Positions 21,573 to 64,000 of a DNA stretch of 64,000 nucleotides are shown one piece after another; the stretch's first letter is position 1, and each line of letters opens with the position of its first letter. The notes below the pieces were generated by a model that did not search any database, was not told the DNA's origin, and worked only from the letters and a program-made list of their open reading frames with translations. This stretch comes from Candidatus Peregrinibacteria bacterium HGW-Peregrinibacteria-1 (GTDB lineage: Bacteria; Patescibacteriota; Gracilibacteria; UBA1369; LOWO2-01-FULL-3). The stretch is from the NCBI GenBank assembly GCA_002839505.1, contig PGYE01000001.1:124001-188000 (forward strand), given 5' to 3'. The position numbers were made by a program, and so were the translations under genes.

Positions 21573-21752
21573 CTAGTTTCCCTTCTTTGTGTCCTTCCTC
21601 TTGTGCAAAACATGTTTGCGGCACCCCGGACAAAATTTATTCAACTCCTTCACGATCTCATCACTCCTTCTCTTCAAATAGTAAGAAATATAATTCGCAC
21701 GATTACACTCTTCGCAGTACCAAGTACAGTATTGACTTTTTCCCTTAGCCAT
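21573..21752 (-). CDS. rpmG: 50S ribosomal protein bL33
   Basis: A 59-residue protein beginning MAKGKSQYCTWYCEEC and ending in a basic tail. It carries the zinc-finger form of bL33: one Cys pair CEEC at residues 13-16 and another CPGC at about 41-44, then the family hallmark RKHVLHKRK. The NYISYYLKRR segment corresponds to the RNYxTTKNKR region of other bL33 proteins. It has its own promoter (21788-21815) and terminator (21528-21556). The start is the ATG at 21752, about 29 bases after the expected transcript start. Confidence 0.92.
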   Translation of the reverse strand: MAKGKSQYCTWYCEECNRANYISYYLKRRSDEIVKELNKFCPGCRKHVLHKRKDTKKGN

Positions 21753-21787
21753 AAGTTACAGATGTTATTTACTTCAAAGCAGACGGA

Positions 21788-21815
21788 ATTTTATAGAAAA
21801 AAACGGCTTTGTCAA
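21788..21815 (-). promoter_or_regulatory. Promoter of rpmG
   Basis: Minus strand: perfect TTGACA (21810-21815), 16-base spacer, TAAAAT (21788-21793), leader about 29 bases. Confidence 0.65.
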
Positions 21816-21880
21816 AGAATTATTTCAAATAAGCCAGTTTATTGCGCCAAAAAGCAATATCTCCCCCAACAAAACACATC

Positions 21881-21909
21881 TTGACTAATTGTTGAATTTG
21901 ACTTATTAA
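21881..21909 (+). promoter_or_regulatory. Promoter of the coiled-coil / helicase-methyltransferase cassette
   Basis: TTGACT (21881-21886), 17-base spacer, TATTAA (21904-21909), giving a leader of about 19 bases to the GTG at 21935. A second TTGACT (21898-21903) with TAATTA (21922-21927, 18-base spacer) would start transcription at the GTG itself. Which one is used cannot be told from sequence. Confidence 0.5.
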
Positions 21910-21934
21910 GTAGTCTTCGCATAATTATAAATCT

Positions 21935-24900
21935 GTGAAAAATCGCACAAACAAGGATTTAATATCCATAATCAAAGGTAGACTAGCCGACCCCAACTCT
22001 AATAAACCCCTTGTTCTAAAAGTTTCAGAAATCGGCACAGATGGAATCTCCCTCATCATTGAAGCATGTTCAAATTTTATTCAAGATGTGATTTTCGGTA
22101 ATTCACAAGACCCAACTGGCCAACTACAACAAAGGCAACATAAAGACGAAATCCTTTATGAAAATATCGCGGGATATGTGGAAGACTCCTCACAAAAAGT
22201 TCAAGAAAAAATTGCTGCCCTTCATGCTAAAAAGCCTATAGATTCAAACGAATTATGCAGAGTAGTTTCCACACATAAAAGATCTTTAAATCAACAGATT
22301 AAACTACCACTAGATAATAGCCAGAAAATATTAGCAATTCAGACCCGGATCAGTTCCACAGTAAACAAGCTAGTCGAACACTGTAGAGCTCGTATTCAAA
22401 TAATTTTTGATGATAACATGATCGCCACCGACGATTCTCATATAACATCAATAGATACATCCCTGGAAGACATTGAAGAAGCCGAAGAAGCAGAAACAAT
22501 CAATGCCATTACCAGCCCAAGTACTCCACAAGAAGAATCTCCTTCGTTGGAAGAAATATTCCAAGAACTCTCCCAAGAAGAAGCCGCTGAATATATTACG
22601 GATATTTTCAATAAAATCTTAATCCAACCCTTCTTGATAGAGTACGCAGACTCACTAAAAAAGCTTGGATTGGATCGAGAGATATTCATAGGAGACCTCA
22701 ATTATAAAATATCGCTTCTACCAATTAATGAACTCCGAAAGCTATCAAGAAAACTACACAACAAAATATTAGAAACTCACCCTAACACCAACTTTGACGA
22801 TCTAATTATCGATGCCATTAATGGGATCGAGTCTATAAAGAGAGAGGTAGTTGCAATAGGTACCAGTGACGCAATGCGATCAGCCTTTTATGAAAGTTTC
22901 TCTAAGGATTTAATTAGATCCACACATGACAGATTATCAACACTTGTCGCCAGTCTAGAAAAACTAAAAGGAGTAAGCCTACTGAGCTTAACCAGCTCTA
23001 GCTCCCCTGTAACCCTAGAAAATTTTGAAGAAGTTGCCTTTAAGGAGTTTCATGCACTATGCCAAGCTTTGGACGCTGCTGGCCCAAACGGAAGTACCGA
23101 AGTAAAAACAAAAATTGAAATTTATATGGCAGAACGGAGCCAAAGTCCAGAAGCTGGTTTCAACATTGAACAAGTCATTTTAATCTTACGCAACACCTTA
23201 TCCAAAATTGAAAGTAAGGGAAAAAAAAGAGCAGATGCCAAATGTGATTTAAGATTACTTTTTCCAAGCAAAATGAATCTTACTATGTATGCAAGGACAG
23301 CTCTGAAGAAAGCATTAAATGAAATTCTTGAAGAAATAACATCTCATTATGTTAATCTAATTCAGGGATTTTCAATCTTATACTGTCACCTTATTGCCGA
23401 TGTCATCCAAAAAGTAGTAGAGGAAACAAAATCTGACAATACTATCCTCCTGGACAATGCTAAAGCGACCAGCATTGGACAATATCAAATTATGATTTCT
23501 CAACTCATTCTTAGTAAATCACAAGAGTATTATGCAGCTCTTAGAGGACAAAATGGAGGATTCATAAGCCACAAAAGCGTTTTCGAATTCTATCTCAACG
23601 AGCACCAAAATCTCTTCAAAATGCTTACAGCTGAAGTAGCCGATTTCATCGACAAAAATCGCTGTCCTGAATTGATAGATAGAGAACAATTAAAAGCACA
23701 TCTATCAAAAAGGGTAGTGCTGGAACCAGAACTTCCAAGAAAGTTGATTAAATATACATTTTTCAGCATCGCAGCAGGAGACCAAAAAGAACCTACACAA
23801 AGCAGTGACACCTTTCTAGGCTTTAGATTTAAAGACCGCACCTATATTGAAGACATATTTGATCAGAGTCAAAAAGATCTTAAAGATATGAAGCGACAAA
23901 AAGAATTAATGGCACTATCTTTATGGGGAGAAACCGTCGGTGACACGCCACCTCAAATTGATGATTCAGAACTTTACAGACTACAGGCAATCATAGCTGT
24001 AGAAGAAGATATCAATCCTACCGATGAACAAAACTTAGAAAGACTCCTAGCTAAATTGGCTAAAGATCTCAACAATAACTTTCGAGGAGGCTACCCCTGG
24101 TGGACACCAGAAACCATAAGACCTCATGTTGTAGGCTATCTAGAACAAATTCAGGAAGAGGATTCTCAAGAAAATCCAACTCCAGAACATATATCTGAAA
24201 CAGATCAAAGAATCCAAAAGTTTAAGGATTGGCACGAGACGCTTGTCGAACTCAAACGGCCACGCGGGCTAAGAAAAATAATCAATTCTATCCATATAAT
24301 TTTCAGCAATCCGGCAACAGTCAAAACTTTACCCGCCATCCAAAAAGAAAAAATCTTAGAAATCGCTGAACTTTTTATGAACAATCACACTGTCGAAACA
24401 CTATCCAGCGGTAAAAAACAGGACCGTTTCAATGTTGGGGAATATGATCTCGCCGACATGCTTCGCAAAGCCACACAGCCAGAAAAATTTAGAGAAAGAA
24501 GAGAAATTGAGGCAATTGAAGAAACGCTAGCGCGAATGAGCACTTCCGTTCAAAGATTAGAAGATGAACTCCAACAATGCGACAACTCTCTGACAGAAGA
24601 TGAAACTGTCAATGAAGAATTGTTTCAATTAGAATTAAAAGAACAAGATCTCGAAGATGAAATCAAGATTCTTGACTCTAAGATTAAAGAATTGGACAGT
24701 TTGGTAAGGCAGGTAAGCGGCACTTACAGCGACGCCATTATTAATAATGACAGCTCCACTGCCGACCAAAAAGAAAAAGAACTCAAATCTCTACGTGACG
24801 AAAAGAAAACTCTCGATAGCAACAGAGAAAGTTTTATAAACAAACTGCAAGAAATTCAATTAGAAATAGAGGGGATCAAGAGCCGAAAAATTGACACCGT

Positions 24901-25021
24901 CCAAATTGAAAACAGAAAAAGAGAATTGGAAGAAAAAATAATAATCCTGCTAGATAAACAATCGGAGTTTCTCAGTGCTCTCAGAACAATTAACGAACAA
25001 TTTAGACACCAACTAACATGA
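21935..25021 (+). CDS. Giant protein of unknown family with C-terminal coiled coil
   Basis: 1028 residues from a GTG start (KNRTNKDLIS follows), with no closer ATG. It has no signal peptide and no convincing transmembrane segment, so it is cytoplasmic. The protein is mostly helical. An acidic low-complexity stretch near residues 180-215 is rich in Glu and Asp. The last 150 residues or so (about 865-1020) are charged heptad-like coiled coil with many Glu, Lys and Leu. No Walker A, nuclease or methyltransferase motif was found. It overlaps the helicase gene at 25018 by four bases (ATGA), so the two are coupled and probably form one complex. Its composition is less C-biased than its neighbours. 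I do not recognise the family. Confidence 0.8.
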   Translation: MKNRTNKDLISIIKGRLADPNSNKPLVLKVSEIGTDGISLIIEACSNFIQDVIFGNSQDPTGQLQQRQHKDEILYENIAGYVEDSSQKVQEKIAALHAKKPIDSNELCRVVSTHKRSLNQQIKLPLDNSQKILAIQTRISSTVNKLVEHCRARIQIIFDDNMIATDDSHITSIDTSLEDIEEAEEAETINAITSPSTPQEESPSLEEIFQELSQEEAAEYITDIFNKILIQPFLIEYADSLKKLGLDREIFIGDLNYKISLLPINELRKLSRKLHNKILETHPNTNFDDLIIDAINGIESIKREVVAIGTSDAMRSAFYESFSKDLIRSTHDRLSTLVASLEKLKGVSLLSLTSSSSPVTLENFEEVAFKEFHALCQALDAAGPNGSTEVKTKIEIYMAERSQSPEAGFNIEQVILILRNTLSKIESKGKKRADAKCDLRLLFPSKMNLTMYARTALKKALNEILEEITSHYVNLIQGFSILYCHLIADVIQKVVEETKSDNTILLDNAKATSIGQYQIMISQLILSKSQEYYAALRGQNGGFISHKSVFEFYLNEHQNLFKMLTAEVADFIDKNRCPELIDREQLKAHLSKRVVLEPELPRKLIKYTFFSIAAGDQKEPTQSSDTFLGFRFKDRTYIEDIFDQSQKDLKDMKRQKELMALSLWGETVGDTPPQIDDSELYRLQAIIAVEEDINPTDEQNLERLLAKLAKDLNNNFRGGYPWWTPETIRPHVVGYLEQIQEEDSQENPTPEHISETDQRIQKFKDWHETLVELKRPRGLRKIINSIHIIFSNPATVKTLPAIQKEKILEIAELFMNNHTVETLSSGKKQDRFNVGEYDLADMLRKATQPEKFRERREIEAIEETLARMSTSVQRLEDELQQCDNSLTEDETVNEELFQLELKEQDLEDEIKILDSKIKELDSLVRQVSGTYSDAIINNDSSTADQKEKELKSLRDEKKTLDSNRESFINKLQEIQLEIEGIKSRKIDTVQIENRKRELEEKIIILLDKQSEFLSALRTINEQFRHQLT

Positions 25022-28000
25022 TAGGCAAAATTGAATTATCCAAACTGGTTAGCAATGAAGCTAGAGAGCTTATAAAAAAAACTCCCCGGCTTAACGATGC
25101 AGTGGTAAAATTATTAACTGACTTCAACCGATTATATTCCAGCTACCAGATCTCCAACATTCAAGACATCTTTGAAGCCTGTGAAATCTTCGACAGAGAA
25201 GTACAAATTTCCCCATCTCTCTCAAAAGATATCACCTCAGTCCGGAAAAAAATTCGAGGCGCTCTCATCGAAATGCTTTATACCAGCGAAACCAGCAATC
25301 TAAAACTTGGCGCTTGGGAAACTGTAGATCAACTAACAAGAGAGCGTGACCTTGGTAAAGCAGTCGCCGAACTTATTGACATTTTACAAGAAAAAAAACC
25401 GGAACAGTTCAATCAGCAATGGATTGGAATTGCTGACAAGAATCTTTACGAACACTTAAAAAACTTACTCAAAAATCCCCAGACTAACACCGTTAACTGG
25501 GAGGATTTAAAGCGATTACTCCCCGAAGCTTTCGCCACAAAATTCAAAATTACAGTCAACACTTCCAGAGAGGAACAGGTCGTCAAAATCATTAATGAAT
25601 ATCGCAGTATCATCGAGATGCTCGGGGCCGAAAGTGCCGCAGAAGCCCTCCTCGCCCTCGGATTAATCGAAGAAGGCAACTATTCGCAAACGCTAAATAT
25701 TATTGGCGAACATCTTGGAACTTGCCAAATCCCCTTCCCAAACCTCACTGATATCGACGCTCTCCCGGAAATCGTCATCGATCTTCCATCAATAAGAAAA
25801 CTTCTCTTCATTAGACTTCGTAACCTCGTGTACCAAGAATTAGTCAAAGACGAAGACGAAAGTGTACCTCTAGAAATCCACAAAAACCGCTTAGAAAAGC
25901 TCCGTCAACGAACCAGGGCCATATTAAAAAAGAAATTAGGCAAAGAAAAAAGTGCACACCAAGGCCTATATGATGAGGTAATCGCATACTTTGAAGAGAT
26001 TCTAAAAATCAAATCTCCAACAAACATGGTCGACAGAATTATTGGCAAGAATGGAAGAAGCTATTATTTCCCCTCAATAAGGCAGAAAATGGCCATGAAA
26101 GAACTCTCCGACAAACAAAGACTACTGGTTGCGTTCTTTATGGGTAAAGGTAAAACAGGTGTTGCCTTCTTGACCAAAGAAATGGTCAAGGCCAAAAAAA
26201 TGCTTTACATCTGTCCCGGAGGTGAATTAATCGATGAAATTGAAGCCCGTATCAGTAAATATTATAAAAAAGGTAAAGCCCCATCAGTTGGACGAATTGA
26301 AGCCCCTCTTGATGCCGAAAAGCTAGAACAGGCCTTAAAATGCGACATAGTCATCATGCCTTTCTCGATGTTGGGCAGCAAAGTCGATAACAAAAGCGTC
26401 AACGACCAACTAAGTGAAACTGAATTTGATTTTATGGTTGTCGACGAAGTTCACAATGCCAAACGCGAAGGTAAATTATGGACCGAAGAAATCAACAAAC
26501 TAGCCAACTCCATTCCAGACCTCTACGAAAATGGTCATATAGTACTTCTATCCGGAGATCCAACGCCAAATTCTCCCAGCGACATAGTACCGCAATTACG
26601 ACTACTTGACCGCACAAAATTCGGAGAAAGCAGATCCTTGAAAGCAGTGGTGAAAAAACTTGGACCTCTCACTCTCAGGACCATCCTCCTCGAATCAATG
26701 TTGCTGATTGACGAACCAGAAGACTGGGAAAAATACATTAAATTACAAACCTTCGACCTCTCACCAAAGGAAAGAAGCTTTTATGAAGCTATCCGCTCTA
26801 ACGATGAGTTATCACATAGTGAGAAAGCTAGACAACTATCCTTGTTCTTGATGTCCCCTTGGCTATTTGTCGATGAATCATCGGAAGAAATTGGCTCATA
26901 TGTAAAACAAACCGCAGAAACGGTCAAAAAATATCTATTTGAGGAAGATGAAGATGCCATTCTTATCACTGTTAACGACTTCAAACAAGGAGTTCTTCGA
27001 GATCATGATGACTATCCTGGTAAAAAGCCTTTTGTCTCCAAACTTCAGGAACTTCTCCCAGCAGATATCGACTGGTACATAATTGATGGAGATATAACAA
27101 AAAACGAGCAAAAGGAAATCATCAAAAAAAGCAGAAATGTAACGAAAAAGACCGTAATCGTCGCCATGTCTAATGCCCTCCGTGAAGGCATCAATCTTTC
27201 ACACATGAAAAGAGGAATCTGCATCGGCCCTGATTACAACAAACCCAACGACGCTCAAAGAATCAAAAGACAAGCCCGCGAAGGTAATGAAGACGTCGAA
27301 ATCACCATGTTGATGCCCAAGGATTCATTCTTTACCGCCAAACACCGCCATGCCGAACAAAAATACTCTCTGACACAAAGGATGAAATATGGAGGAACTT
27401 TGACCGAAAATGATCTCGAGCTTCTAGACGGAGAAGACTTTTCTGACACCGTGCGTATTGAAGATGGTGTTGTATATATCGGAACAAAACTTGTTGATCA
27501 CCTATCAACTCCCAGCAAAAAACTAAACGCCCTCATTAGCCACCTACACAACAAAGGTCGTCAATACTGGGAAAAATTCATAGAAAACTACGGGGAATAT
27601 TTCACAAAGCTATACATGGAGAGAGACAAAAAAAGTCCTAGCTCCAATAACGGCAGATTTGTCTCTTCGCTAATCCGAAAGCTTGAAGACAAAAAAATCC
27701 TCCCATCTACTGAAGGAAGTCCCCTCTACTGTGACCTTGCATGTGGGCCATTAGTATTAGAAAGAGCCTTAAGCGTCGACAAAGTATCTAGAAAAATCTA
27801 TAACCTTGATCTCAACGAGTACATGCTGGAATATGGCCTAAAAGAACATCCACAAAGAAAAACTAGCGTTCAACAAGGGGCCATCAATGACATGCAAGGA
27901 ATCTACGAAGATGAATTCTTTGATTTAATAAATTGTTCCTTCGCACTCTACTTTTCAAAAAATAACAGGAGATCCAAAAACCCCGAAAACAACGAAAGAT

Positions 28001-28617
28001 CACAAGCCCTAATGGAATTCAACCGAGTGCTAAAACCTGGAGGAATAGCCATTATTACCCTCCCCTCGAATGTCGGAACTGATATCGAGCGCCAAAATTT
28101 TATCACCCATCTAAGAGAAGCTTTCGGCTTTGAAATTGTCGAGAATTATACCGGAATTGCCCAATCTACCGATAAAAAAGAAGAAGGCAAATTTTCAAAC
28201 TACACCATTGTTTGCAAAAAAATTGATCTCCCAAAAAAAGAGCTGATCGATCCTCTAAAACTAGCTCTTTCAAGAATCGCCGTCATCCCCAAAACTCGAT
28301 CTTTCAGCGAATTAACATCCGCCGAAGACTTCGAACCACCACTTCACAGTGAATTCAAAATCAATGACCACGAACTAACCTATGACTACACCGACGAAAT
28401 CGAAGAAAAAGATGAATACAATATCTATAAACAGATCGACGAAGCAAGACTATACCTCCGCCAATTAGTTTCCAAACTAGGAACTTTAAACAACCTGCCC
28501 CAAGAATACCAAGCCGAAATGAAAGAAAAAAATGTCTGCCTTATCCACTATGGTGGCGAGAACTTCTCCTTCTGCTTCCTGACCGACAACCCAATGCGCC
28601 CCTACTCCATCGCCTAA
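25018..28617 (+). CDS. SNF2-like helicase fused to a class I SAM methyltransferase
   Basis: 1199 residues. Residues 1-340 are helical and unrecognised. A superfamily 2 ATPase core follows: MGKGKTG (375-381, motif I), DEVHNA (476-481, motif II), SGDPTPNSP (motif III-like) and QRIKRQAREG (747-756, the SNF2-type motif VI Q-x3-R-x2-R). Residues about 895-1085 form a Rossmann-type methyltransferase: CDLACG (905-910, motif I), then DLNEYML, FDLINCSFALYF and VLKPGG (1004-1009), which is the Methyltransf_11 pattern. No DPPY/NPPF motif of DNA base methylases is present. Residues after 1090 are a charged tail. It overlaps the 1028-residue gene by 4 bp. Helicase and methyltransferase in one chain suggest a nucleic-acid or ribonucleoprotein maintenance or defence role. 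The substrate is unknown. Confidence 0.86.
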   Translation: MIGKIELSKLVSNEARELIKKTPRLNDAVVKLLTDFNRLYSSYQISNIQDIFEACEIFDREVQISPSLSKDITSVRKKIRGALIEMLYTSETSNLKLGAWETVDQLTRERDLGKAVAELIDILQEKKPEQFNQQWIGIADKNLYEHLKNLLKNPQTNTVNWEDLKRLLPEAFATKFKITVNTSREEQVVKIINEYRSIIEMLGAESAAEALLALGLIEEGNYSQTLNIIGEHLGTCQIPFPNLTDIDALPEIVIDLPSIRKLLFIRLRNLVYQELVKDEDESVPLEIHKNRLEKLRQRTRAILKKKLGKEKSAHQGLYDEVIAYFEEILKIKSPTNMVDRIIGKNGRSYYFPSIRQKMAMKELSDKQRLLVAFFMGKGKTGVAFLTKEMVKAKKMLYICPGGELIDEIEARISKYYKKGKAPSVGRIEAPLDAEKLEQALKCDIVIMPFSMLGSKVDNKSVNDQLSETEFDFMVVDEVHNAKREGKLWTEEINKLANSIPDLYENGHIVLLSGDPTPNSPSDIVPQLRLLDRTKFGESRSLKAVVKKLGPLTLRTILLESMLLIDEPEDWEKYIKLQTFDLSPKERSFYEAIRSNDELSHSEKARQLSLFLMSPWLFVDESSEEIGSYVKQTAETVKKYLFEEDEDAILITVNDFKQGVLRDHDDYPGKKPFVSKLQELLPADIDWYIIDGDITKNEQKEIIKKSRNVTKKTVIVAMSNALREGINLSHMKRGICIGPDYNKPNDAQRIKRQAREGNEDVEITMLMPKDSFFTAKHRHAEQKYSLTQRMKYGGTLTENDLELLDGEDFSDTVRIEDGVVYIGTKLVDHLSTPSKKLNALISHLHNKGRQYWEKFIENYGEYFTKLYMERDKKSPSSNNGRFVSSLIRKLEDKKILPSTEGSPLYCDLACGPLVLERALSVDKVSRKIYNLDLNEYMLEYGLKEHPQRKTSVQQGAINDMQGIYEDEFFDLINCSFALYFSKNNRRSKNPENNERSQALMEFNRVLKPGGIAIITLPSNVGTDIERQNFITHLREAFGFEIVENYTGIAQSTDKKEEGKFSNYTIVCKKIDLPKKELIDPLKLALSRIAVIPKTRSFSELTSAEDFEPPLHSEFKINDHELTYDYTDEIEEKDEYNIYKQIDEARLYLRQLVSKLGTLNNLPQEYQAEMKEKNVCLIHYGGENFSFCFLTDNPMRPYSIA

Positions 28618-28631
28618 ATGCGAGAATAAAA

Positions 28632-28660
28632 ATGACACACAAAACATTTAATGATATAAT
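28632..28660 (+). promoter_or_regulatory. Promoter of the small membrane protein gene at 28692
   Basis: ATGACA (28632-28637), 17-base spacer, perfect TATAAT (28655-28660), leader about 25 bases. It starts right after the helicase gene, so the cassette and this gene are separate units. Confidence 0.65.
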
Positions 28661-28691
28661 ATACCCAGTTAAAATCTAACAAATAACAAAA

Positions 28692-29078
28692 ATGCAAACC
28701 TCAACTATTGTATTACAAATTGTCGGACCACTATTCATTATGGCTGGAGCCGGACTCCTCGTAAACCGTGGTTACTACGAGAAACTCGCAAACAGCATCA
28801 GCAAATCAGTTCTCGCCCTTCTGGCAATTGGAATGCTTGCAGCCTCTGTAGGACTCCTGATAATCAACACCGGGCAGGGATGGACCAACCAACAGGAAAT
28901 AGTAACCAGCCTTCTAGGATGGGCCATGTTCCTAAAAGGACTCTTTATTCTTGTTGTGCCTCAATCTATGATAAATCTCAGCAAATCATTCTTAAAACAC
29001 GACAGCGCCCTTATGCTTGATGGCGCATTAGCATTGATTCTCGGTTCTTACATCACCTACCTTGGTTATTTCATGTAA
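28692..29078 (+). CDS. Small integral membrane protein, four helices
   Basis: 128 residues, mostly hydrophobic, with four predicted membrane segments: about 8-25, 38-58, 72-93 and 105-126. The conserved-looking loops contain GYYEKLANSISK and MINLSKSFLKHDSAL. It resembles small two-repeat membrane proteins, since the first and second helix pairs could be an internal duplication (both contain a similar S-K-S-x-L element). No function is recognised. It is monocistronic, with a promoter at 28632 and a strong terminator at 29100-29130. Confidence 0.82.
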   Translation: MQTSTIVLQIVGPLFIMAGAGLLVNRGYYEKLANSISKSVLALLAIGMLAASVGLLIINTGQGWTNQQEIVTSLLGWAMFLKGLFILVVPQSMINLSKSFLKHDSALMLDGALALILGSYITYLGYFM

Positions 29079-29099
29079 GGGTCGTCCTGAAATTACCCT

Positions 29100-29130
29100 A
29101 AAAGCAACAGCCGAATTGGCTGTTGCTTTT
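29100..29130 (+). terminator. Rho-independent terminator
   Basis: A 13-bp stem (AAAAGCAACAGCC with its complement) around a GAATT loop, ending in TTTT, just after the membrane protein gene. Confidence 0.88.
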
Positions 29131-29161
29131 CATTTATTCTCCTACTAAAATACCCACCGTT

Positions 29162-30979: not shown

Positions 30980-32272
30980 TCACGCATTTTTCTTTCCCTT
31001 ATTCTTTACCACCACAAACATCAACCCCAAAACCACTACTACCGCCACCACCATCGCAACCATACTATGCAACAACATTGAAACCAAGATCGTCACTATC
31101 GACAAAACCAAAGCCGTAATAAAGGTGATCATCCCGACAAACCCTCGACTGACCGCACCCAAGAACGGAATAATATCCAACAGCACACTCAAAGGAGCAA
31201 GCACCATTGAAAGGCCAGTCCACATCATCAAGAACCCTACCAACCTAAGAATCCAAACCTTCATTCCGTGAGCACTATCCTCTGCCCCCAATGCCCCTTC
31301 AAAACTCGTATTATAGAATCTGTAGATATTCTCGTTGTCAAACTCTGTCGCCACATAAGGCTTAATCATTGCCCCCTCCTTCTTACCAAACAAAGTTCCA
31401 TCCACGCCGCTATTCAACACACTATAAGTTATTCTCAAATCACCAACCTCCGGACTTGTCGCCACATTTCTTCCACTTGTTACCACCGTTGTTGTCTCAC
31501 CGAAAAAGTCATTTTCATTCTCCGCATCAACCTCCTCACCAAAGAAATCATTTTCCTCTGCTACATCATCCTCGAAAAAATTAGTTGTCGTAGAACTAGT
31601 CACCGTCTCACTACTAGAAACACTTCCACCAGAAACCGGAACATAAACATAGTTACCCTCAACATAAGCTCCGTTTACCGAAGAAAGATCAACCATTCCA
31701 TCCGCCAAAGACAAAGCACTCGCACTCGGCATCGCCAAGCTTGAAGTATCCACATCATAAGCGCCAACGCGCGCACTTGAAGCCTTAGAAGTCGAAGCCG
31801 CATATCTCATTGATGGATTCTCGTGACCCGCACTATTATTAAAACTTGATGAACTAGCTGGAGAAGAAGACCACTCCTTTTCATAAGAATAAGTAGTTGT
31901 TGTCTCCTGAGAACCACCCAGTTTTGTCTCAGTCTTACTGGAAGAAACCTCCTTCCATCCATACATCTCCACCTTTCTATCAACCACTAAATAGTTACCA
32001 GGATTCAAAAACAAACCATCACCAATACTATCGCTTGTCTCCAATTTACCTGCCAATCTCACAAAAGCACCATCACCCTCATTTCCCACACTATCAGCCA
32101 CAATCTCCTGAGATGTCACCAAAATTTCCGACTTACTATCAGTCCCTTCGTTACTAAATAACACAAAAAACGACGCCAAAAACAACAACAAACCAAACCC
32201 TATTCCTTTTATCGAACCCATCAAACGAGAACCATAACCGGTCTTTGTTACCTGTACTACCTGATCTGCCAT
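30980..32272 (-). CDS. TMEM43/LUMA-like membrane protein
   Basis: 430 residues. It matches the TMEM43 (DUF1625) pattern by eye: an N-terminal helix GIGFGLLLFLASFFVLFSNEG, a large extracytoplasmic region, and a C-terminal bundle of three or four helices (WILRLVGFLMMWTGLSMVLAPL, the DIIPFLG turn, then two strongly hydrophobic segments). The NEG after the first helix and PLSVLLDIIPFLG are landmarks of the family. In the loop, an acidic motif occurs twice: EENDFFGEE and NENDFFGE. Ser/Thr-rich linkers flank it. Function in bacteria is unknown. It is transcribed divergently from the spermidine-synthase-like gene. Confidence 0.85.
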   Translation of the reverse strand: MADQVVQVTKTGYGSRLMGSIKGIGFGLLLFLASFFVLFSNEGTDSKSEILVTSQEIVADSVGNEGDGAFVRLAGKLETSDSIGDGLFLNPGNYLVVDRKVEMYGWKEVSSSKTETKLGGSQETTTTYSYEKEWSSSPASSSSFNNSAGHENPSMRYAASTSKASSARVGAYDVDTSSLAMPSASALSLADGMVDLSSVNGAYVEGNYVYVPVSGGSVSSSETVTSSTTTNFFEDDVAEENDFFGEEVDAENENDFFGETTTVVTSGRNVATSPEVGDLRITYSVLNSGVDGTLFGKKEGAMIKPYVATEFDNENIYRFYNTSFEGALGAEDSAHGMKVWILRLVGFLMMWTGLSMVLAPLSVLLDIIPFLGAVSRGFVGMITFITALVLSIVTILVSMLLHSMVAMVVAVVVVLGLMFVVVKNKGKKNA

Positions 32273-60995: not shown

Positions 60996-61040
60996 GGGAG
61001 TAAAACCTTGGCGTCCTCAGTGTTTCAACGGGATACTCCC
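60996..61040 (+). other. Hairpin between the two surface protein genes
   Basis: GGGAGTA (60996-61002) pairs with TACTCCC (61034-61040) around a 31-base loop, 30 bases after the stop of the upstream gene. It may be a 3' structure of that mRNA or a leader element for the next gene. No T run follows directly, although a T-rich stretch begins about 20 bases later. Confidence 0.3.
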
Positions 61041-61078
61041 ATACCAATTATTCGCTATCTTACTTTTTTTATTTCCGC

Positions 61079-61084
61079 TATAAT
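61079..61084 (+). promoter_or_regulatory. Probable -10 box of the last surface protein gene
   Basis: A perfect TATAAT, about 35 bases before the ATG at 61119, with no clear -35. The spacing to the start equals that of most genes in the window. Confidence 0.35.
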
Positions 61085-61118
61085 ATACCTTGTTTTAATT
61101 ATTTCTCATTTTTTATAT

Positions 61119-64000
61119 ATGTTTAGAAAAAAGTTTTTGTACGTGTTTGTGATGCTAAGTGTGGTTATGAATTTAGTTCCTTTGGATTTTGCGAATGCCG
61201 ATTGGAACGAAACTGTACTCATAGAAAACATCGCTGGAGCTGCATATAATCAAAACCTACAGGTGGATAATTCCGGCAACGCTTTTGCCATTTGGAAAGA
61301 TAACAATAAAGTTTATAGTAATAGATACACTAATGGCGCTTGGGTTTCTTCAACTCCAGAAAAAATTAGTGAGGACATCTATGGAACTGCTAACAATCCC
61401 AAAATAGCTATAAATAATTCTGGCGAAGCTATTGCCGTGTGGGGACAAAATGGTGCCATTTATGCAAACACATATACTAATGGCGAATGGTCTCTAACTA
61501 CCACAAAAATTAGCGAAGACGCCTATGGTTCTACCTCCTTGCCTCAGATAGCAATGGATAGTTCAGGAAATGCGGTTGCTATGTGGTTACAGTCTGATGC
61601 GATACAGACAGTATACACAAATACATATACTAATGGGGAATGGTCTTTAACTACTACAAAAATTAGTGATGATATTGATGGTAGTTCCTATACCCCGGTT
61701 TTAGATATGGACGATTCCGGTAATGCCGTTGCCATGTGGACACAAAGCAATGATACAAAAAAAATATATATAAGAAATTATAGTACATCTACTCAATGGG
61801 ACGATGCTCACCTTTTAGCTACTCTACCATTATTAACTTCTACCGAAATAGACGCCTCGTTGGATGGTTCGGGTAATGCTATGGCGGTATGGAACGATGA
61901 CACCTTCGCTGTTTATGCAAGTAAATTTACAAATGGTGGATCTTGGGGGGGTGCAGAAGAAATAAGTAACGGTGGTTTTGTAGGTAGTAATCCATTTGCA
62001 AAAGTCGATATGGCTTCAGGAAATGCATTCGTTGTTTGGCGTAACTCTGCTGATGGAAAACTATATGCAAGCAAATATGATGGTAGTAGTTGGGTTAATA
62101 AAAAAGAGATTATAGGTGGCTCTACTGCTTCTTCGTCACAGCAGCAAATAGTAATGAATAGTGCTGGTAACGCCATGGTGGTCTGGTCTCAGTCTTTATC
62201 CTTTGCAAATGCCGATATTTATACAAACATTTACGATTCTGGCTCTTGGTCAGAAACTCACACGGCAATGACCGGTGATAATAACTATAGCCTGCAGCCC
62301 GATATAGGCGTGGATTCTCTTGGTAATTTTATTATTCTGTGGAGCTCTGCTGCAGATGATAGATCTGGAGCTAGCATATACTCTAATTCCTATATAAATA
62401 ACGACACGCCCACTATCTCGTCCCTCACTGCCACCCCCGTCAATGATGGCACTGGCGAAATCAGTATCGCCTCAACTGTGAATGATGGCGACATGAATGA
62501 TTTAAGTATTTCTTATTATTACGAAGTAGGAGCATGTGGTACATACAGCGCACAGCAAACAGCATCATCGACAGAAACAATAACAATCACAAGTGTAGAT
62601 AGTGCGACTTATGGACTAGCAAACATTGTAATTTCAGGTAACCAAGCCACAGCGGTAACTACAGCATCAGGTGATAACACAGTGGTCGTAACATGGGATG
62701 TGCTTTCTGATATCCCCAGCCCGACGGGATCATACTGTGTCCATGCATTTGTAAACGATGGCATAACAGACTCAACAACAGCAACAGTACAGATAACCCC
62801 TATAACCGACTGGAAGGGAGCTGCGCTTGTGGGAACAAACGACACGGGTGCTACAGATAGACCACAAATAGCATTTGATAGTGAAGGGAATGCAACGGCA
62901 GTATGGGCGCTATTCGACACAAGATTTAGTATTTATGCTAATAGATATTCAGCAGCGACAAACACCTGGGGAACAGCTGAGGTAATTGAAGATAATGACA
63001 CAGCTGGATATGATAATAATCCGCAAATCGCAGTAGACGGTGACGGAAATGCAATAGCTGTATGGGAACAATTTGATGGAACCAGCACTAATGTTTTTTC
63101 AAATACATATTCGGCACTAACAGGAACATGGGGAACAGCAGAACTACTTGAAAGTAGCTTAGGAACTGCATATGGCCCACAAATAGCAGTGGACGGTGAC
63201 GGAAATGGAATAGCAATATGGCTGCAGTACAGCGGCGGCAGAAGTGATATCTATTCAGCACGATATACGGCATCAACAGAAACATGGGGGGCACCAGAAC
63301 TTGTAGAAACATCTGATGTCGGAAGTGCTATAAATCCAAAAATAGAATTTGATAGCAGTAATAACGGAATAGCCGTTTGGCAACAAAACAACGGTGTAAT
63401 AGATGTTATCTGGGCAAACAAATATGATGCCTCAACTGGTTGGGGAACAGCTGAAGTAATTTCAGCAACTAATATTGGAAATGCGGCAAGTGCAGAAATA
63501 GACATTGATAGCAACGGAAATGCAATAGCGGTATGGCATCAAAATAATAATACTGAATTTGATGCAGTATCTAGTATCTACGCAAACCGATATGTATCCT
63601 CAACAGGAGCATGGGGAACAGCCACCGCTATAGAAAGTGGTTCGGGTAGTGCATCTACTCCTGCAATCTCAATAGATAACAGTGGAAATGCAATGGTTGT
63701 TTGGACTCAACACGATGGAGTAGCATTTAGTGCACATGCGAATAAATACACCGCGTTAAGCGATTCATGGGGGGCAGAAGAAGTCATCGAAAGCTATGAT
63801 GGAGGCACCTCAAATTTTGTACAGGTAGACTACAACGGCGTAAATTATGTAGCAGTATGGCAACAAGCTGTCGGGCCAAACTATAGCATATGGGCAAATA
63901 CATATGATGGAAGCTCATGGGGAGATGCTGAAATCCTGGAGGATTTTGCCGGAAGTGCAGAAAGGGCACAACTCGCCTCATATAATAGCGGGTCTTCAAT
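61119..64000 (+). CDS. Giant surface protein with tandem beta-propeller-like repeats (runs off the right edge)
   Basis: Open from an ATG at 61119 to the window end, at least 960 residues, no stop. It begins with a signal-peptide-like MFRKKFLYVFVMLSVVMNLVP ending near FANAD. Then come tandem units of about 45-60 residues with the pattern P-x-IA-x-D-x2-GNAIAVW-x4-IYANxY-x4-W-x2-A-x-I, at least six before and seven after a central Ig-like domain (residues about 430-565). That central domain matches the one in the previous gene, including YYEVGAC and YCVHAF. The repeats resemble sialidase/propeller blades. Base composition here is not C-biased; G equals or exceeds C in places. It is probably surface exposed. 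The anchor lies beyond the window. Confidence 0.85.
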   Translation, partial: MFRKKFLYVFVMLSVVMNLVPLDFANADWNETVLIENIAGAAYNQNLQVDNSGNAFAIWKDNNKVYSNRYTNGAWVSSTPEKISEDIYGTANNPKIAINNSGEAIAVWGQNGAIYANTYTNGEWSLTTTKISEDAYGSTSLPQIAMDSSGNAVAMWLQSDAIQTVYTNTYTNGEWSLTTTKISDDIDGSSYTPVLDMDDSGNAVAMWTQSNDTKKIYIRNYSTSTQWDDAHLLATLPLLTSTEIDASLDGSGNAMAVWNDDTFAVYASKFTNGGSWGGAEEISNGGFVGSNPFAKVDMASGNAFVVWRNSADGKLYASKYDGSSWVNKKEIIGGSTASSSQQQIVMNSAGNAMVVWSQSLSFANADIYTNIYDSGSWSETHTAMTGDNNYSLQPDIGVDSLGNFIILWSSAADDRSGASIYSNSYINNDTPTISSLTATPVNDGTGEISIASTVNDGDMNDLSISYYYEVGACGTYSAQQTASSTETITITSVDSATYGLANIVISGNQATAVTTASGDNTVVVTWDVLSDIPSPTGSYCVHAFVNDGITDSTTATVQITPITDWKGAALVGTNDTGATDRPQIAFDSEGNATAVWALFDTRFSIYANRYSAATNTWGTAEVIEDNDTAGYDNNPQIAVDGDGNAIAVWEQFDGTSTNVFSNTYSALTGTWGTAELLESSLGTAYGPQIAVDGDGNGIAIWLQYSGGRSDIYSARYTASTETWGAPELVETSDVGSAINPKIEFDSSNNGIAVWQQNNGVIDVIWANKYDASTGWGTAEVISATNIGNAASAEIDIDSNGNAIAVWHQNNNTEFDAVSSIYANRYVSSTGAWGTATAIESGSGSASTPAISIDNSGNAMVVWTQHDGVAFSAHANKYTALSDSWGAEEVIESYDGGTSNFVQVDYNGVNYVAVWQQAVGPNYSIWANTYDGSSWGDAEILEDFAGSAERAQLASYNSGSS

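What the first reader, a model, noticed from the sequence alone, without database searches (positions are those of the whole stretch)
21935..28617. Two-gene cassette: giant coiled-coil protein plus SNF2 helicase-methyltransferase fusion
The genes overlap by 4 bp and share one promoter. The second carries a full SNF2-like motif set (MGKGKTG, DEVH, Q-x3-R-x2-R) followed by a Methyltransf_11-type domain (CDLACG, VLKPGG), an unusual pairing in one chain. The partner of 1028 residues is unrecognised, with an acidic stretch and a C-terminal coiled coil. No nuclease or DNA-methylase motif (DPPY/NPPF) is seen, so this does not match DISARM, BREX or type I/III restriction as I know them. It could be a new defence, ribonucleoprotein or chromosome-maintenance system.
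Basis: partly seen in the sequence, partly recalled or inferred. Interest (0 to 1): 0.82.

Follow-up and report, generated by a model that had tools for sequence, protein, structure and literature searches.

The report
Mobile two-gene SNF2 motor-methyltransferase cassette
A tiny-genome bacterium of the Patescibacteria carries a horizontally moving gene pair, an unrecognised giant helical protein plus a DNA-motor enzyme fused to a methyltransferase domain; close relatives trade pieces of the pair, as they might in an arms race, but its function has not been shown.

Summary
A 1028-aa gene (21935-25021) overlaps by 4 bp a 1199-aa gene (25018-28617) that has a complete SNF2-family motor followed by a class I methyltransferase fold.

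What the tools add: (1) The pair is a real unit: in all 11 genomes of one well-supported clade of the motor protein, a giant unrecognised protein (917 to over 2398 aa) lies directly upstream. (2) It is accessory: 16 of 353 genomes of the class, 2 of about 30 of the family. In relatives the site is empty (rpmG beside tRNA-Thr), and the nearest relative carries the pair elsewhere. (3) Two congeneric genomes have mosaic copies: partner, N-domain and methyltransferase at dS 0.13-0.26, far below rpoB (0.71), but the motor at dS about 2. (4) ATPase motifs are almost always kept; the SAM motif decays in the Peribacteria branch. (5) Partners of several lineages contain large internal repeats.

PADLOC, NCBIfam and Pfam hold no such system. 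Identified neighbours are mainly housekeeping genes, so there is no defence-island evidence. Best reading (inferred): a translocase-driven defence or DNA-surveillance pair, in domain order closest to Type ISP restriction enzymes but without a recognised nuclease or adenine-methylase motif. Function is untested, and both AlphaFold models failed.

The parts
21935..25021 (+). Gene A: 1028-aa unrecognised, predicted all-helical partner (GTG start)
   Evidence: ORF; no family or PDB match; positional counterparts upstream of the motor gene in 10 other genomes; only the G264 counterpart is recognisable by sequence (24-25%, E 1e-4)
22454..22594 (+). acidic stretch of gene A (about residues 174-220)
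   Evidence: read from the translation
24512..24994 (+). C-terminal coiled coil of gene A (about residues 860-1020)
   Evidence: the only confident part of the AlphaFold2 model, pLDDT mostly 65-90 there, long helices 849-936, 940-982, 988-1027
25018..28617 (+). Gene B: 1199-aa helical N-domain + SNF2 motor + class I methyltransferase fold (ATG start, overlaps gene A by 4 bp)
25018..26007 (+). N-terminal helical region of gene B (about residues 1-330), no family match
   Evidence: predicted helices, low confidence; in G214 a separate 286-aa ORF resembles it (22-26% identity to residues 52-241 of the G264 and G156 proteins, E 4e-9 and 6e-7)
26053..27417 (+). SNF2-type motor of gene B (about residues 346-800); motif I 26140-26160, motif II 26443-26454, motif VI 27256-27279
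   Evidence: Pfam, PDB profile, motif table over 18 homologues
27718..28227 (+). class I (Methyltransf_11-type) methyltransferase domain of gene B (about residues 901-1070); SAM motif 27730-27747, VLKPGG 28027-28044
   Evidence: Pfam 7.1e-11; motif table
21898..21925 (+). possible promoter (TTGACT-16-CATAAT), 9 bases before the GTG start
   Evidence: consensus match only, not above the chance level for the region
21753..29161 (.). interval between rpmG and tRNA-Thr that is empty of the cassette in relatives; holds the pair and an unrelated membrane-protein gene (28692-29078)
   Evidence: synteny with L073, L074, L078, L082, L083; 28692-29078 belongs to a common dispersed family
21573..21752 (-). 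rpmG-like gene (bL33), left border marker
   Evidence: translation matches orthologues at the same place in L073, L074, L078, L082 and L083
29162..29237 (+). tRNA-Thr (ggt), right border marker
   Evidence: ARAGORN

Best explanation
A horizontally exchanged two-component accessory system, most likely for defence or surveillance of foreign DNA. Gene B's SNF2 motor binds and tracks along double-stranded DNA using ATP. The giant helical partner (gene A), translated together with it, is the sensor/scaffold that decides when or on what the motor acts. The C-terminal methyltransferase fold acts as a modification or recognition module: probably SAM-binding in the window's own branch, and apparently decayed to a non-catalytic module in most of the Peribacteria branch. 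Shown here: the domains, the obligate pairing in one clade, patchy distribution, empty site, transfer, mosaic exchange of the motor, and uneven conservation of ATPase and SAM motifs. Inferred: DNA as substrate (from SNF2 family knowledge), complex formation, sensing by the partner, and the biological role.
For: Complete SNF2 motor with P-loop K and DE box kept in all 18 homologues; complete motif I GK[TS] in 17 of 18. Giant partner upstream in 11/11 clade I genomes with gaps of -41 to about +102 bp. 16/353 genomes of the class and 2 of about 30 of the family. Empty rpmG/tRNA-Thr site in relatives, including G264, which carries its pair elsewhere. Compositional outlier: GC 0.394 against 0.451 +/- 0.012 for other window segments, and GC lower than flanks in 11/11 clade I loci. 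G204/G205: partner and outer parts of gene B dS 0.13-0.26 against rpoB 0.71, motor dS about 2.2. The partner diverges faster than gene B (24 vs 38% and 40 vs 62% identity). Large internal repeats in partners.
Against: No defence-island neighbours recognised; no PADLOC match; no recognised effector (nuclease, NADase, protease, pore) in either protein; no homologue with this architecture found in phage or plasmid collections. Patchy distribution and mosaicism are also shown by other accessory genes. The dS contrast comes from two MAGs, and its motor value is near saturation.
Confidence: 0.5

Rival explanations
1. Counter-defence or mobile-element upkeep gene: the pair protects or maintains an integrated element or incoming DNA (in the manner of phage P1 DarB, a methyltransferase-helicase protein known to me from memory), not the host.
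For: Cassette is transferred and lies at different sites in two genomes of one family; two neighbours of related loci match an IS200-like transposase family (Y1_Tnp) and three a type IV secretion pilin family.
Against: No integrase, capsid, relaxase or replication gene recognised beside the window copy or, among the families listed, in the neighbours scanned; no direct repeats at the borders; no homologue in 50,697 phage and 72,556 plasmid records beyond the motor alone.
Confidence: 0.17
2. Transcription- or chromosome-associated remodeller (RapA/HepA- or Rad54-like) with an accessory methyltransferase, retained in some lineages for a non-defence role.
For: Closest solved relatives of the motor are SNF2 remodellers and, more weakly, RapA (6e-15); gene B in G204/G205 is under purifying selection overall (dN/dS 0.10).
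Against: Absent from about 95% of genomes of the class; lies at different places; transferred among relatives.
Confidence: 0.18
3. DNA-uptake or prey-DNA processing enzyme of an episymbiotic lifestyle: the motor handles imported DNA.
For: Hosts are reduced-genome Patescibacteria; a related CPR bacterium is described as relying on DNA uptake and on restriction enzymes that may degrade host DNA (PMC8080830); three neighbours in related loci match a type IV secretion pilin family.
Against: A lifestyle gene should be common, yet about 95% of the class lacks it; no consistent linkage to competence genes.
Confidence: 0.08

Closest known systems
Type ISP restriction-modification enzymes (LlaGI, LlaBIII)
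   Same: SF2 translocase followed by a methyltransferase in one chain; large horizontally variable enzyme (domain order from PMC7049714)
   Different: No recognised N-terminal nuclease, no N6-adenine methylase motif, no recognised target-recognition domain; methyltransferase is Methyltransf_11-type; an obligate giant helical partner; in the one pair compared it is the motor that is swapped
DISARM (DrmD SNF2 helicase + DrmM methylase + DrmABC)
   Same: SNF2-type helicase combined with methyltransferase function
   Different: Motor matches the DrmD model only at E 0.014 against a 610-bit cut-off (13.7 bits); fused rather than separate methyltransferase; no DrmA/B/C match in the window pair
ZorD-like and other SNF2 defence helicases (Zorya, Druantia, Hma)
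   Same: SNF2-type motor; PDB chain 8qy7 (E 6.5e-18), which from memory is ZorD
   Different: No ZorA/B/E partners; ZorD-type proteins have no methyltransferase domain (from memory); no PADLOC match to these models
Bacteriophage giant SNF2 helicases (PHROGs phrog_62)
   Same: Motor region matches (5e-25)
   Different: Match limited to the motor; no phage record contains the motor-methyltransferase pairing
Solo SNF2-methyltransferase proteins of other Patescibacteria (clade II: G007, G077, G188, G214, G237, G432, G572)
   Same: Same motor-methyltransferase order, 22-28% identity
   Different: Mostly without a giant upstream partner, next to LigA, a tRNA synthetase or a Pif1-like helicase gene; G214 has a 2214-aa neighbour

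Membership tests
SNF2 family (superfamily 2 ATPase) | P-loop GK[TS], DE[AVI]H-like motif II, motif VI Q-x3-R-x2-R, SNF2-related core | tested here: met
   Pfam, PDB profile with SNF2 proteins first, motifs conserved in 18 homologues
SNF2 family (superfamily 2 ATPase) | ATP-dependent translocation on double-stranded DNA | not testable with these tools
   needs biochemistry
Class I SAM methyltransferase (Methyltransf_11 type) | SAM motif I (DxxxG-like) plus acidic motif II | tested here: met
   window: CDLACG and NLDLN, Pfam 7.1e-11; degenerate in several Peribacteria homologues
Type ISP restriction-modification | N6-adenine methylase motif [DNS]PP[YFW] | tested here: not met
   absent from window proteins; only one homologue (G156) has a DPPF, in the motor
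Type ISP restriction-modification | N-terminal Mrr/PD-(D/E)xK nuclease | tested here: inconclusive
   no Pfam nuclease match, but the low-confidence model cannot exclude a divergent fold
Type ISP restriction-modification | C-terminal target-recognition domain | tested here: inconclusive
   about 130 C-terminal residues with no family match
DISARM | DrmD-class helicase with DrmA, DrmB and a DrmM methylase | tested here: not met
   NCBIfam DrmD 13.7 bits against cut-off 610; no Drm models for the pair in PADLOC
Any anti-phage system in PADLOC-DB 2.0.0 | model match for either protein | tested here: not met
   partner none; gene B only weak matches at E 4e-4 and above
Defence-island gene | repeated co-location with known defence genes | tested here: not met
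   76 neighbours scanned as a set and 20 individually: individually resolved matches are generic DEAD, ABC, DNA ligase and Pif1-like proteins; mad2 matched 4 members of the set and was not resolved to proteins
Horizontally acquired cassette | empty site in relatives, atypical composition, patchy distribution | tested here: met

The most novel reading that the evidence does not exclude
A new two-component immune system of Patescibacteria in which a giant repeat-built helical protein senses an invader and licenses an SNF2 motor, and in which lineages counter inhibitors by swapping the whole motor segment while keeping partner, N-domain and methyltransferase fold; in one branch the methyltransferase has become a non-catalytic binding module.
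Probability: 0.25. Interest if true: 0.82.

Novelty: new variant of a known kind. Interest (0 to 1): 0.6.

Why it matters
Patescibacteria have very small genomes, and large parts of their accessory gene content cannot be named. A conserved two-gene unit of about 7 kb, moved between relatives and evolving as a mosaic, is a costly investment for a genome of 1 Mb and points to a strong, changing selection such as phages. The architecture (SNF2 motor + Methyltransf_11-type fold + obligate giant helical partner) is in none of the defence or family libraries searched. The natural mosaic G204/G205 and the branch with decayed SAM motifs give direct hypotheses: which segment sets specificity, and whether methylation is needed at all.

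Tried and rejected
Scans of viral contigs and of genome contigs with the single protein found no relatives. Partner profiles against the PDB: nothing convincing. Profile-profile comparison of the window-type partners with the Peribacteria-type partners and with the G148 and G214 giants: no detectable homology (probability 4.5% or less), so 'partner' is defined by position and character, not by proven common descent, outside each group. Internal repeats are clear in several partners but not in the window protein (z 1.3); an earlier repeat HMM contained its own second copies and is superseded. Flanking direct repeats as att sites: only chance-like matches. Recurrent tRNA insertion: not seen beyond the window. 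W_24 (28692-29078) as a third component: rejected, it is a dispersed common family. The 93-aa ORF 21603-21884 as a component: rejected, antisense to rpmG. L067_8 as a defence-candidate partner (PDC-S48 match): rejected, it is a LigA-type DNA ligase and the match is to its BRCT end. Neighbour matches to BrxH/DpdF/PsyrT and mad3: rejected as generic DEAD-box and ABC ATPase similarity.
Full report
1. The observation. Two ORFs lie at 21935-25021 (GTG, 1028 aa) and 25018-28617 (ATG, 1199 aa) on the + strand and overlap by four bases. The genome is one contig of 998 kb and holds one copy. The 1199-aa protein B matches ResIII, DEAD, Helicase_C, SNF2-rel_dom and Methyltransf_11 above Pfam cut-offs. 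A profile of 16 homologues finds SNF2 enzymes first in the PDB, from S. solfataricus Rad54-like 1z63 (1.2e-34) through ISWI and INO80 to RapA. There is no [DNS]PP[YFWH] in either window protein. The 1028-aa protein A has no significant match in Pfam, NCBIfam, PADLOC, PHROGs or the PDB. The 93-aa ORF at 21603-21884 is antisense to rpmG and not a gene.

2. The pair is a unit. B homologues were taken from the class and phylum and their surroundings read. The tree splits them at 100/99 support. Clade I: window, G264, G148, G156 and seven Peribacteria-family (f31) genomes. Clade II: G432, G214, G188, G237, G007, G077, G572. In all 11 clade I genomes a giant protein sits directly upstream of B (917 aa and cut by a contig end in G167, 675 aa visible in G204 at a contig end, otherwise 940 to over 2398 aa), with gaps from about -41 to +102 bases as the ORFs were called. 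Clade II members mostly lack it and lie beside LigA, a tRNA synthetase or a Pif1-like helicase; G214 has a 2214-aa neighbour and a separate 286-aa ORF resembling the N-terminal region of clade I proteins.

3. The partner. Among seven f31 genomes the partner is one recognisable family. Window and G264 partners are weakly alike (24-25%, E 1e-4). No profile comparison joins these groups to each other or to the G148 and G214 giants. Several giants are built from large internal repeats: G155 (z 36.6; segment 212-540 aligns with 547-871), G214 (z 24.5), G148 (z 16.3), G156 (z 13.1); the window protein shows none (z 1.3). A repeat profile built only from first copies of three other genomes recovers both G155 copies (8.7e-39 and 1.1e-32). 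AlphaFold2 gave an all-helical model at pLDDT 45, reliable only for the C-terminal coiled coil.

4. It is accessory and moves. B is found at convincing length in 16 of 353 genomes of the class and 2 of about 30 of the window's family. In same-family genomes the order is lipoprotein-like gene (-), rpmG (-), tRNA-Thr (+), with nothing of the cassette between: L073, L074, L078, L082, L083. In the window the cassette sits exactly in that interval. G264, the nearest relative with a pair, has this site empty (L078) and carries its pair between orthologues of window genes at 55.7-57.5 kb (L026). The cassette has GC 0.394 against 0.451 +/- 0.012 for other segments of the window, and GC skew -0.11 against a mean of -0.34 (range -0.47 to -0.07). 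In all 11 clade I loci the pair has lower GC than its flanks. Family f31 occurs in three separate parts of the tree, and G572 of another class groups with G007/G077 at 100/100. Ancestral paralogy with loss could also give the f31 pattern.

5. Mosaic exchange. G204 and G205 belong to one genus. Third-position identity along B is 0.84-0.96 for residues 1-200, about 0.42-0.62 for 200-850 (essentially the motor) and 0.74-0.92 from 850 on; the partner is mostly 0.86-1.0 with one divergent block near residues 1656-1756. dS: partner 0.19, B 1-195 0.13, B 860-1220 0.26, motor about 2.2 (near saturation); rpoB of the same two genomes 0.71 and three synthetase comparisons 0.78, 1.16 and 2.38, the last two possibly not strict orthologues. 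So most of the cassette was exchanged between these species well after they split, while the motor segment has a different, much older history. Both breakpoints lie inside one continuous ORF in each genome. I did not find the donor: both motors are about equally far from G220 and G167. Both genomes are MAGs, so an assembly chimera is unlikely but not excluded.

6. What is conserved. The P-loop lysine and the DE of motif II are kept in all 18 B homologues, and the full GK[TS] in all but G155 (GKF). The SAM motif is canonical in the window (DLACG) and G264 (DLGCG) but degenerate in f31: DVNSGG (G205, G204, G220), DVGSDG (G167), IHTHSQG (G193), LHTCSSG (G187). A G-x3-S element after the methyltransferase core is kept in most members even where the SAM motif is poor. 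The motor therefore appears indispensable while SAM chemistry does not; this is inference from motifs.

7. Mechanism. Shown: domains, pairing, transfer, mosaicism. From SNF2 family knowledge: ATP-driven tracking on dsDNA. Inferred: A and B form a complex; A senses or scaffolds; the methyltransferase fold modifies or reads a target. The evolutionary profile fits an arms race, and I put anti-phage or anti-foreign-DNA function at 0.5. Against it: no defence-island context. 76 neighbours were scanned as a set and 20 individually; the individually resolved PADLOC matches are generic DEAD, ABC, ligase and Pif1-like similarity, though four mad2-type (methyltransferase) matches were not resolved to proteins. 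No effector domain is recognised, and no phage or plasmid record holds the architecture.

8. Comparison. Type ISP enzymes have the same motor-then-methyltransferase order in one chain but also a nuclease, an N6-adenine methylase and a target-recognition domain (PMC7049714). The adenine-methylase motif was tested and not met; nuclease and recognition domain could not be settled. So it may work somewhat like a Type ISP or SNF2-driven defence enzyme, but it is not a member on present evidence. DISARM membership fails. I file it as a new variant of a known kind (SF2-translocase/methyltransferase systems); if the partner proves to hold a new effector it would deserve a higher rank.

Noticed in passing
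window 61008-63998 (+, open at the window end): Large unrecognised ORF (997+ aa, no Pfam match) with GC3 0.30 and weak third-position GC skew (-0.16), unlike almost all other genes of the window; possibly another acquired gene.
   Followed up: partly
window 29162 to about 31000 and the same interval in L073, L074, L082, L083: The stretch from tRNA-Thr towards the TMEM43-like gene (30980-32272) differs in gene content between same-family genomes; it looks like a variable hotspot beside the cassette site.
   Followed up: partly
L030 2638-11808 and L032 1-5709: Sharp in-frame mosaic between two congeneric genomes: motor segment about dS 2, the rest of the cassette dS 0.13-0.26, rpoB 0.71.
   Followed up: yes
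L039 12288-15256: Two adjacent unrecognised genes (369 and 621 aa) similar to each other (31%, 5e-29) lie directly upstream of the clade II motor-methyltransferase gene in G188.
   Followed up: no
L033 7785-13655: A 1956-aa SNF2-methyltransferase protein in a genome whose gene holds in-frame TGA codons (read as Gly here); about 900 extra residues precede the motor.
   Followed up: no
window 28692-29078: Small membrane protein with several dispersed homologues per genome in this family (weak DUF2065 similarity).
   Followed up: partly
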